Below, in pieces: positions 1,246-4,165 of a stretch of 6,620 nt of DNA; the stretch's first letter is position 1; every line of letters starts with the position of its first letter. Both the position numbers and the translations under genes were made by a program. The stretch covers positions 1 to 6,620 of the forward strand of contig SOJA01000060.1 of NCBI GenBank assembly GCA_004376975.1. Reading direction: 5' to 3'. This stretch comes from Candidatus Bathyarchaeota archaeon. GTDB lineage: Archaea; Thermoproteota; Bathyarchaeia; Bathyarchaeales; UBA233. The notes under the pieces were generated by a model. The model had not been told where the DNA came from. It searched no databases and was given only the letters and a program-made list of their open reading frames with translations.

Positions 1246-1266
1246 ATCCAACTATATTTTAACTGT

Positions 1267-1279
1267 TAATATATCAAAT
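1267..1279. promoter_or_regulatory. TATA-like element between divergent galT and apgM
   Basis: The AT-rich core TTAATATATCAAA reads as GATATATTAA on the minus strand. Its centre, near 1272, is about 25 bases before a predicted minus-strand transcript start near 1247, leaving a 12-base leader that contains the galT ribosome binding site. On the plus strand the same core would place a start near 1296, upstream of the apgM ribosome binding site. A second plus-strand candidate, TGTATAG at 1284-1290, would start transcription near 1313. The 87-bp gap between start codons therefore probably carries both promoters, perhaps with one shared TATA core. Prediction is from spacing and composition only. 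Confidence 0.5.
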
Positions 1280-1309
1280 ACTCTGTATAGGAGGTTCTCA
1301 ACGTAAAGT

Positions 1310-1314
1310 GGAGG
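1310..1314 (+). promoter_or_regulatory. Ribosome binding site of apgM
   Basis: GGAGG lies eight bases before the GTG start at 1323. A second GGAGG at 1290-1294 lies 20 bases upstream. It is probably near or upstream of the transcript start and has no substantial reading frame behind it. Confidence 0.7.
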
Positions 1315-1322
1315 CGTAACTT

Positions 1323-2653: not shown

Positions 2654-3466
2654 CTACAATCGTGAGAGTGATTTGTAGAGATATCTTGCTCCTAACGAAG
2701 TCAGCCAGCCGCTTATAACAAAGACTGTTGCTGGAAAAAATCCAACGTTGTAATTTATTAAAATGGTCTCAAGTAACAAGAAAACGATGGCAATCGTCCC
2801 TGCCGATACAAGTCCGAACTTCTTTCCATATTTTTGCATGGTTTGAATGCTAAGAAGCCCTGAGAGAAATATGTCGCCTAACCCGAGCATTATATAGCCT
2901 TCAGATGGAAAAGTTGGTACGATGATCATCACAGGTAGCTGTAGCGCAATCATTCTCTCACTCGACTCCACCATAAATCCTGTGATTAGAACCTGAACTA
3001 TATCCATAAGAGTTAGAAGGACAACGAAGAGGGTAGTGGTTTTCCATGAGAACAACCCTCCCATGTAAACTGAGATACATATGGCAAATATTATTGCAAA
3101 GAGGTTCATCAGGTAAGGCGTCCACAGGTATGTATCTCTATACAAAACGTACAGGGCGATGAACAAGGCTGGAGTTAGAACTGCCAAGTACCATTTTGGC
3201 ACAACCAAATACGTAAACAAGAACAAGATCATAGAATAGGCATACAAGAACAAAACCATTATAGCCATATCCGGAATTTGTATAATTGTCCATCCGAGAA
3301 CAGTTATCATGGCGCCCATTGCTACTACTAACAGAACCGTGTGTCGGGTCGTGAATTCCTTTCCACCCAGAAGAGATTTGACTTTTTCTCCGAATTTGGT
3401 GTAGAGAAATAGTACAGCCGCCGTGATCAGAAAGAGGGCTAGCGGGAGTGAAACATCGAATCTCAT
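2654..3466 (-). CDS. Presenilin/signal-peptide-peptidase-like intramembrane aspartyl protease (archaeal A22 type)
   Basis: A 270-residue, strongly hydrophobic protein with about nine membrane segments (roughly 6-23, 43-64, 68-88, 93-110, 116-136, 143-163, 190-208, 218-237, 243-258), as in presenilins and signal peptide peptidases. The predicted catalytic pair is visible: D155 within helix 6 (LTLMDIVQV) and D198 in GLGDIF, the diagnostic GxGD motif in helix 7, preceded by LPVMIIVP as in archaeal homologues. The 43-residue gap between the aspartates is close to that of signal peptide peptidase. The PAL motif of helix 9 appears as F-P-A-T (244-247), a Leu-to-Thr deviation. Members cleave transmembrane segments of membrane proteins; the substrate here is unknown. 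It is divergent from a rhomboid gene and probably leaderless, since a TATA-like ATTTTAA ends 23 bases before the ATG and no convincing ribosome binding site is present. Assignment rests on motifs and topology, without a similarity search. Confidence 0.82.
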   Translation of the reverse strand: MRFDVSLPLALFLITAAVLFLYTKFGEKVKSLLGGKEFTTRHTVLLVVAMGAMITVLGWTIIQIPDMAIMVLFLYAYSMILFLFTYLVVPKWYLAVLTPALFIALYVLYRDTYLWTPYLMNLFAIIFAICISVYMGGLFSWKTTTLFVVLLTLMDIVQVLITGFMVESSERMIALQLPVMIIVPTFPSEGYIMLGLGDIFLSGLLSIQTMQKYGKKFGLVSAGTIAIVFLLLETILINYNVGFFPATVFVISGWLTSLGARYLYKSLSRL

Positions 3467-3489
3467 ACCCCTGCTTAGTGCCTAACTGG

Positions 3490-3497
3490 TTAAAATT
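3490..3497 (-). promoter_or_regulatory. TATA-like element for the presenilin-like protease gene
   Basis: On the minus strand AATTTTAA ends 23 bases before the ATG at 3466, the spacing expected if transcription starts at or next to the start codon (a leaderless mRNA). The GGGGT directly abutting the ATG is too close to act as a normal ribosome binding site. Confidence 0.45.
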
Positions 3498-3530
3498 GTT
3501 TTGCGGTGCTTTGAAGAAGTCTGACACGAT

Positions 3531-4145
3531 ATGTGTATATATGTTCGTGAGCACTCGTATGAAATAAGACTGGGTGAATGGTCCTTGTTCAAACTTACGC
3601 CTTCTAACACCTTAATCATCGCAAACGTGTTGGTTTATGCCTACACAGCAGTTGTTAGTGGCAACCCTTTTACCATAAACGAAGATGTGCTTCTGTGGTT
3701 AGGTCAAGACAATGCTTTCGTTATGAGCGGTGGTTATTGGCAGCTTTTCACGTCCATGTTTGTTCACATCAACTTGCTTCATCTTTTTGGCAACATGGTT
3801 TTCCTTCTCATCTTTGGCATCAGAGCTGAGGACCTCTTCAGCACAGAAGAGTTCTTCGCAATCTATTTTGCATCTGGACTACTTGGCAACTTGTTAACTT
3901 TGTTAATGTCTCCCTTCATAGTTTCTGCTGGTGCTTCAGGAGCGATATTCGGAATATTCGGCGCAGTCGTGATCTACCTAAGAAAAACATTCGGCGAATC
4001 AATCATAGGAGCATTGATCTTTTCATTCTTTCTTTTGATGTTGAGCATGTCAGCTGGTGTCAACATAATCGCGCATTTCGGTGGACTCGTGGCAGGGTTA
4101 ATTATCGGATACGCTTTAGCGAAAACTCACAAAATTACTCTATGA
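3531..4145 (+). CDS. Rhomboid family intramembrane serine protease
   Basis: A 204-residue polytopic membrane protein with about six helices and the complete rhomboid signature. H79, H84 and N88 form the H-x4-H-x3-N motif of helix 2 (FVHINLLHLFGN), matching H145, H150 and N154 of E. coli GlpG. The nucleophile is S136 in GASG (134-137), and its partner H182 lies in AHFGG of the last helix (N178 to Y194). WQLFTSMF before helix 2 is also typical. The family cleaves transmembrane helices of membrane proteins; the substrate is unknown. The start is uncertain. The ATG at 3531 lacks a clear ribosome binding site and sits on a TATA-like TATATAT (3536-3542). An in-frame TTG at 3585, with GGGTGA seven bases before it, would give a 186-residue protein that keeps all helices. 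Head-to-head with the presenilin-like protease gene; TGA stop 20 bp from the convergent ABC permease gene. Confidence 0.93.
   Translation: MCIYVREHSYEIRLGEWSLFKLTPSNTLIIANVLVYAYTAVVSGNPFTINEDVLLWLGQDNAFVMSGGYWQLFTSMFVHINLLHLFGNMVFLLIFGIRAEDLFSTEEFFAIYFASGLLGNLLTLLMSPFIVSAGASGAIFGIFGAVVIYLRKTFGESIIGALIFSFFLLMLSMSAGVNIIAHFGGLVAGLIIGYALAKTHKITL
3536..3542 (+). promoter_or_regulatory. TATA-like element overlapping the first codons of the rhomboid reading frame
   Basis: TATATAT centred at 3539 predicts transcript initiation near 3565, downstream of the ATG at 3531 and about 20 bases upstream of the alternative TTG start at 3585. If used, the longer protein cannot be made from this transcript. Confidence 0.4.
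3572..3577 (+). promoter_or_regulatory. Ribosome binding site for the alternative TTG start of the rhomboid gene
   Basis: GGGTGA complements the 3' end of 16S rRNA (GGTGA core) and lies seven bases before TTG 3585, in frame with the rhomboid gene. Together with the TATA-like element at 3536-3542 it argues for the shorter protein beginning MFKLTPSN. Confidence 0.4.
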
Positions 4146-4165
4146 AATAACAAATGAATTCCAAG

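What the first reader, a model, noticed from the sequence alone, without database searches (positions are those of the whole stretch)
2654..4145. Two unrelated intramembrane proteases encoded head to head
A GxGD presenilin/SPP-like aspartyl protease (D155, GLGD with D198) and a rhomboid serine protease (S136, H182) are divergent, with 64 bp (118 bp if the TTG start is used) between start codons. Both families cut transmembrane helices, rhomboids often first and SPP/presenilins often after another cut. Adjacency with a shared promoter region raises the possibility of a sequential regulated-intramembrane-proteolysis or membrane-protein turnover module. The motifs are seen directly; the cooperation is inference.
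Basis: partly seen in the sequence, partly recalled or inferred. Interest (0 to 1): 0.7.

Follow-up and report, generated by a model that had tools for sequence, protein, structure and literature searches.

The report
Two intramembrane proteases, head to head
In one lineage of uncultured Bathyarchaeia, two unrelated membrane-cutting proteases sit back to back in the genome, most likely because one gene once moved next to the other; the pairing is real and inherited, but nothing yet shows that the two enzymes work together.

Summary
A GxGD presenilin/SPP-like protein (2654-3466, -) and a rhomboid (PF01694, 99.6 bits) are divergent in a bathyarchaeal window. The rhomboid most likely starts at TTG 3585, not ATG 3531, so the gap is 118 bp and holds two back-to-back promoter-like elements. 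The GxGD protein misses Pfam's SPP cut-off, but some relatives pass it, both aspartates are invariant, and its model matches presenilin, SPPL2a and PSH. Of 256 genomes of the class, 86 have listed places for both gene families: 9 head to head, 77 unlinked. The paired GxGD genes form one clade (95/93), sister to genes lying beside rpl3. So the pair arose once, most likely by relocation of the GxGD gene, and stayed together while flanks changed. In five relatives the GxGD partner is a fragment or not found while the rhomboid stays. A gene-order control finds 14 of 50 divergent pairs kept at similar distance (6 of 50 with both outer neighbours changed), so retention alone is weak evidence of cooperation. 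Verdict: a true lineage-specific neighbourhood of two probably active intramembrane proteases; co-expression plausible; a sequential-proteolysis module unsupported but not excluded.

The parts
2654..3466 (-). Divergent GxGD (A22-like, presenilin/SPP fold) protease gene, 270 aa; Asp1 = D155 in 'MD', Asp2 = D198 in GLGD, 'FPATV' (P245) at the PAL position
3585..4145 (+). Rhomboid serine protease gene (S54), 186 aa from TTG 3585; Ser in GASGAIFG (codon 3936-3938), His in AHFGG (codon 4074-4076). ATG 3531 is judged not to be the start
   Evidence: PF01694 99.6 bits; start choice from comparison with 8 relatives; invariant catalytic residues
3467..3584 (.). 118-bp divergent intergenic region
3490..3506 (-). 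Candidate BRE/TATA of the GxGD gene (CCGCAAAAC + AATTTTAA), 24-40 bp upstream of its ATG, which suggests a leaderless transcript (inferred)
   Evidence: sequences: clear in window, L001, L002, L003, L005, L019; partly kept in L006, L008 and L061; not seen in L004
3535..3542 (+). Candidate TATA box of the rhomboid (GTATATAT), about 43-50 bp upstream of TTG 3585
   Evidence: GTATATAT in 7 of 9 sequences (window, L001, L002, L003, L005, L006, L019); GCATATATA in L008; a different AT-rich stretch in L004
3573..3577 (+). Candidate Shine-Dalgarno GGTGA, 7 nt before TTG 3585
   Evidence: sequence; also in L001, L002 and L019

Best explanation
Two separate and probably active intramembrane proteases: a divergent GxGD (A22-like) aspartyl protease and a small rhomboid. 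They became neighbours once, in one lineage of Bathyarchaeia, most likely when the GxGD gene left its place beside rpl3 in the ribosomal cluster and landed in the opposite orientation between an NMNAT-like gene and the rhomboid gene behind it. The 118-bp gap now carries two back-to-back core promoters, so the genes can be expressed together but each has its own start site. Most likely each enzyme does its own membrane-protein or leftover-signal-peptide turnover, and the adjacency persists by slow gene-order decay, perhaps helped by co-expression. Shown: gene identities, motifs, fold match, conserved adjacency, single origin, alternative locations, loss of one partner. Inferred: promoter function, enzyme activity, relocation as the route, cellular role.
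For: Head to head in 9 of 86 genomes with listed places for both families, hit-to-hit gaps 110-126 bp. One GxGD clade, support 95/93, sister to G007+G060 whose gene lies between a PF02598 RNA methyltransferase and rpl3. The rhomboid follows an NMNAT-like gene on the same strand, without a GxGD gene between, in G007, G060 and G074; in G008 the order is NMNAT, GxGD (reversed), rhomboid, SAM hydrolase, kinase (L055). Flanks differ among paired genomes: apgM with uppP or an ABC exporter; Fdx and SAM hydrolase; NMNAT and SAM hydrolase; others in G004. Background: 14 of 50 divergent pairs (gap <=400 bp) kept between G002 and G008, 6 of 50 with both outer neighbours changed, this pair included. Catalytic residues kept. 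Presenilin/SPPL2a/PSH fold.
Against: The pair survived a complete change of both flanks, which only 6 of 50 divergent pairs did in the control; that is mildly more than drift predicts and would fit selection for adjacency. The control has one genome pair, part of one genome and simple ORF calls. The rhomboid tree is weakly resolved, so the order of gain and losses rests mainly on the GxGD tree.
Confidence: 0.72

Rival explanations
1. Sequential intramembrane-proteolysis module: the rhomboid makes a first cut and the GxGD protease clears or releases the remaining helix, with co-expression secured by the divergent promoter region.
For: Conserved head-to-head order with 110-126 bp between hits in 9 genomes; pair kept through flank changes; both active sites conserved.
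Against: Single origin; 77 of 86 genomes keep the genes unlinked; 0 of 33 and 0 of 40 further GxGD-bearing genomes have a PF01694 match within 15 kb of the GxGD gene (compared by reading); GxGD gene reduced to a fragment in G061 and no orthologue seen in G063, G065-G067, with the rhomboid retained. Those last four do carry a canonical PF06550 gene elsewhere, so they are not free of GxGD activity.
Confidence: 0.15
2. Pure neighbourhood accident with no co-regulation: two independent promoters that happen to be close. This is a stricter version of the best explanation, not exclusive of it.
For: About a quarter of divergent pairs are kept at this distance anyway (14 of 50); each gene has its own TATA-like element.
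Against: Kept while both sides were rearranged, as only 6 of 50 control pairs were; the compact gap is nearly constant in length.
Confidence: 0.3
3. The GxGD-like protein is not a protease but a non-catalytic membrane protein with a presenilin-like fold.
For: Tyr of the YD motif is Met (90% or more of rows), PAL is PAT, and the protein is below Pfam's cut-off. Paired genomes G003 and G008 also carry a canonical PF06550 gene elsewhere.
Against: Both Asp, GLGD and P245 invariant in 43 of 43 rows; predicted hairpin before TM7 and P245 just before TM9, as in presenilins (the comparison with presenilins is recalled).
Confidence: 0.08

Closest known systems
Archaeal presenilin homologue PSH / MCMJR1 of Methanoculleus marisnigri (A22; 4HYC, 4HYG, 4Y6K)
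   Different: 13-14% identity over the aligned part; 'MD' instead of YD; 'FPATV' at the PAL position (the 2010 paper reports no obvious PAL in MCMJR1 but a PPL; passages of PMC2947513)
Human SPPL2a and presenilin-1
   Different: No match in the PDB sequence search with the single protein or the profile at E<=1; complex partners were not looked for
Rhomboid proteases of the GlpG type (S54)
   Same: PF01694 domain, GxSG serine and histidine
   Different: Rhombosortase and GlpG equivalog models match well below their cut-offs
Haloferax volcanii RhoII and SPP (HVO_0727, HVO_1107)
   Same: Archaeon with both enzyme families (passages of PMC9263693)
   Different: Widely separated locus tags; not described as neighbours in the passages read

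Membership tests
A22 (presenilin / signal peptide peptidase, GxGD) | Catalytic Asp in TM6 and GxGD Asp in TM7 | tested here: met
   D155 in helix 141-162, D198 at the start of helix 196-213; both invariant in 43 of 43
A22 (presenilin / signal peptide peptidase, GxGD) | Tyr before the first Asp (YD) | tested here: not met
   Window has MD; M154 is among the columns conserved in 90% or more of 43 rows
A22 (presenilin / signal peptide peptidase, GxGD) | PAL motif before the last helix | tested here: inconclusive
   P245 invariant, sequence PAT rather than PAL
A22 (presenilin / signal peptide peptidase, GxGD) | Presenilin/SPP fold | tested here: met
A22 (presenilin / signal peptide peptidase, GxGD) | PF06550 gathering score | tested here: not met
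   8.9 bits vs 23.9; four relatives of 58-62% identity reach 24.6-28.3. Filed as a divergent A22-like subfamily, not as a certified member
A22 (presenilin / signal peptide peptidase, GxGD) | Intramembrane proteolysis | not testable with these tools
   needs an assay
S54 rhomboid | PF01694 domain above cut-off | tested here: met
   99.6 bits vs 22.6
S54 rhomboid | Ser (GxSG) and His dyad | tested here: met
   GASGAIFG and AHFGG; Ser and His invariant in 22 of 22
S54 rhomboid | Intramembrane serine protease activity | not testable with these tools
   needs an assay
Two-protease RIP module | Adjacency formed independently in several lineages | tested here: not met
   one origin; 9 of 86 genomes; only this class and part of the phylum were searched
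Two-protease RIP module | Co-expression and a common substrate | not testable with these tools
   no expression or proteomic data at hand

The most novel reading that the evidence does not exclude
A divergent GxGD protease was captured next to a rhomboid in one bathyarchaeal lineage and the two became a co-expressed two-step intramembrane proteolysis unit, kept together while the surrounding genes were replaced. It would be a rare prokaryotic link between the rhomboid and presenilin/SPP families.
Probability: 0.12. Interest if true: 0.65.

Novelty: new member of a known kind. Interest (0 to 1): 0.3.

Why it matters
The role of the GxGD protease of Haloferax volcanii is given as unknown (passage of PMC9263693), and the natural substrates of MCMJR1 were unknown in 2010 (passage of PMC2947513). 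This locus adds a divergent subfamily, mostly below Pfam's detection limit, with a traceable history from the rpl3 cluster to the rhomboid's side. That gives a testable, though weak, lead to function and warns against reading a conserved divergent pair as a module without a gene-order control.

Tried and rejected
Rejected: a rhomboid start at ATG 3531. Rejected: true truncation of the G004 rhomboid; its frame runs into a run of N in the record, an assembly gap or mask, so its active site could not be seen. Not found: recurrence of the pair outside the clade. For G009-G018, 33 genomes and 40 genomes, compared by reading, no PF01694 match lies within 15 kb of the GxGD gene; 7 of the 73 have no rhomboid match at all, and contig ends could hide a few. 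Among the genomes with a canonical PF06550 gene that were searched for rhomboids, the nearest pair was in G086, about 4.2 kb apart on one strand.

Led nowhere: PDB sequence searches with the GxGD protein and with its profile found nothing. Paper searches (presenilin, rhomboid, archaea, intramembrane protease, 25 of 30 listed; Bathyarchaeota, rhomboid, 1 paper; presenilin, Bathyarch, 2 papers; rhomboid, presenilin, genomic context, archaea, 0 papers) showed no title or abstract start on such a pair; apart from passages of PMC2947513, PMC9263693 and PMC4343526 none was opened. Searches also gave nothing on it. The survey of archaeal aspartyl proteases by Raut et al. 2021 (seen only as a reference) is not held, so I cannot say that the pair is unpublished.

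Not done: a GxGD/rhomboid survey outside the phylum (no genome handle there), expression data, a rhomboid structure model.

Full report
What is there. The 6620-base window is from a relative of genomes recorded as Candidatus Bathyarchaeota; the best genome match, L001, encodes a 96% identical GxGD protein. Gene order: pfk end (+), galT (-), apgM (+), GxGD protease (-), rhomboid (+), ABC-2 permease (-), ABC ATPase (-), uppP end (-). The rhomboid passes PF01694 clearly (99.6 bits). The GxGD protein has no Pfam or NCBIfam match at E<=0.001 and only 8.9 bits to PF06550.

Start codon and promoters. In an alignment of nine divergent regions the frame from ATG 3531 stays open only in the window, L001 and L019; in L002, L003, L004, L005, L006 and L008 it is stopped or shifted. 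An ATG or TTG at or next to 3585 is kept except in L006, whose first usual start codon is a few codons further in. GGTGA lies 7 nt before TTG 3585. GTATATAT (3535-3542) occurs in 7 of the 9 as a TATA-like element for the rhomboid. On the other strand CCGCAAAAC-AATTTTAA lies 24-40 bp before the GxGD ATG; it is clear in 6 paired sequences including the window, partial in 3 and absent in L004. So there are probably two back-to-back promoters; this is pattern reading, not measurement.

Is the pair conserved? A genome-contig scan gave 18 loci; 7 (L001-L006, L008) have the rhomboid head to head. In 256 genomes of the class, 139 match the GxGD profile and 106 match the small-rhomboid profile at E<=1e-35. 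GxGD match places were listed for 132 of the 139; the other seven (G061, G063, G065-G067, G102, G256) have weak matches, best E 1.7e-12 apart from G102 (9.1e-20). Of 86 genomes with listed places for both, 9 (G001-G006, G008, G064, G077) are head to head with 110-126 bp between hits; the other 77 are on different contigs or at least 74 kb apart. G064's GxGD gene is cut by a contig end and G004's rhomboid by a run of N.

History. Of the 30 loci cut around the best GxGD matches, 8 have the rhomboid, 15 have the PF02598 methyltransferase and rpl3 on either side, 1 the methyltransferase only, 4 the NAD(P)HX repair gene, 2 none of these. In the GxGD tree the ten paired rows (window included) form one clade (95/93; one change in 94% of bootstrap trees), sister to G007+G060, which keep the rpl3 position. 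In G007, G060 and G074 the rhomboid directly follows the NMNAT-like gene on the same strand; in G008 the GxGD gene lies between them in reverse. The simplest account is one relocation of the GxGD gene into that gap. Later flanks changed: Fdx in G003, G005, G006; apgM with uppP (G002) or the ABC exporter (window, G001, G077); other genes in G004. In G061 only a C-terminal GxGD fragment remains beside the rhomboid (L054). G063 and G065-G067 show no orthologue beside the rhomboid and only weak profile matches in the genome, but carry a canonical PF06550 gene elsewhere; a TrmB-type regulator gene (PF01978 in L064) faces the rhomboid in L064, and L062 shows a similar reading frame. The rhomboid tree is weakly resolved and left out two rows that my script cut too short (G008 and G002), so it is not used for the order of events.

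Is retention unusual? I compared gene order of G002 (1.2 of 1.497 Mb) and G008 (1.557 Mb): 586 reciprocal best hits. Divergent neighbours with gaps up to 400 bp: 14 of 50 kept, 6 of 50 kept with both outer neighbours changed; with gaps up to 200 bp, 14 of 34 and 6 of 34; the focal pair is counted in each. An earlier run on 0.4 Mb with a slightly different criterion gave 4 of 15. Retention is thus somewhat uncommon but not exceptional.

Recurrence elsewhere. Any PF01694 gene near the GxGD gene was sought in G009-G018 and in 33 and 40 further genomes: none within 15 kb. These calls do not cover all 132 listed genomes.

Mechanism and literature. GxGD and rhomboid enzymes both cut transmembrane helices; SPPs often act after a first cut (recalled; a table passage of PMC9263693, describes SPPs as degrading signal peptides and gives the H. 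volcanii SPP role as unknown). MCMJR1 is an active archaeal GxGD protease, and mutation of either Asp abolishes it (passages of PMC2947513). Nothing here ties a substrate of one enzyme to the other.

Conclusion. The arrangement is a lineage-specific, vertically inherited neighbourhood with one origin. Co-expression is plausible; a sequential module is a minority possibility.

Noticed in passing
L009 7070-9960; L026, L027, L029-L035, L037-L040, L042, L045: In 15 of 30 loci cut around GxGD matches the protease gene sits between a PF02598 RNA methyltransferase gene and rpl3 of the ribosomal cluster: an intramembrane protease at the head of ribosomal genes, which might hint at a role close to protein synthesis or export.
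   Followed up: partly
L036, L044, L046, L048; also L012 4275-6673: In another lineage the GxGD gene follows a fused NAD(P)HX epimerase/dehydratase gene on the same strand.
   Followed up: no
L064 2304-2603 (G066); similar frame in L062 (G063): Where the GxGD gene is missing, a TrmB-type regulator gene (PF01978, 43.4 bits) lies head to head with the rhomboid.
   Followed up: partly
L054 1312-1494 (G061): C-terminal fragment of the GxGD gene beside an intact rhomboid: decay of one partner.
   Followed up: partly
class survey, e.g. G129, G128, G168: Many genomes of the class carry a longer form (open frames of about 320-410 aa) that matches the profile in two pieces split around position 85-105, as if it had an insertion.
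   Followed up: no
window 1248-1322 versus L001 10158-11284: Between apgM and galT the window has 75 bp whereas L001 has about 1.1 kb with most of an extra ORF: an insertion or deletion.
   Followed up: no
window 4146-4165: The rhomboid ends only 20 bp from the converging end of an ABC-2 permease gene; among the paired loci examined this neighbour is shared only with G001 and G077.
   Followed up: no
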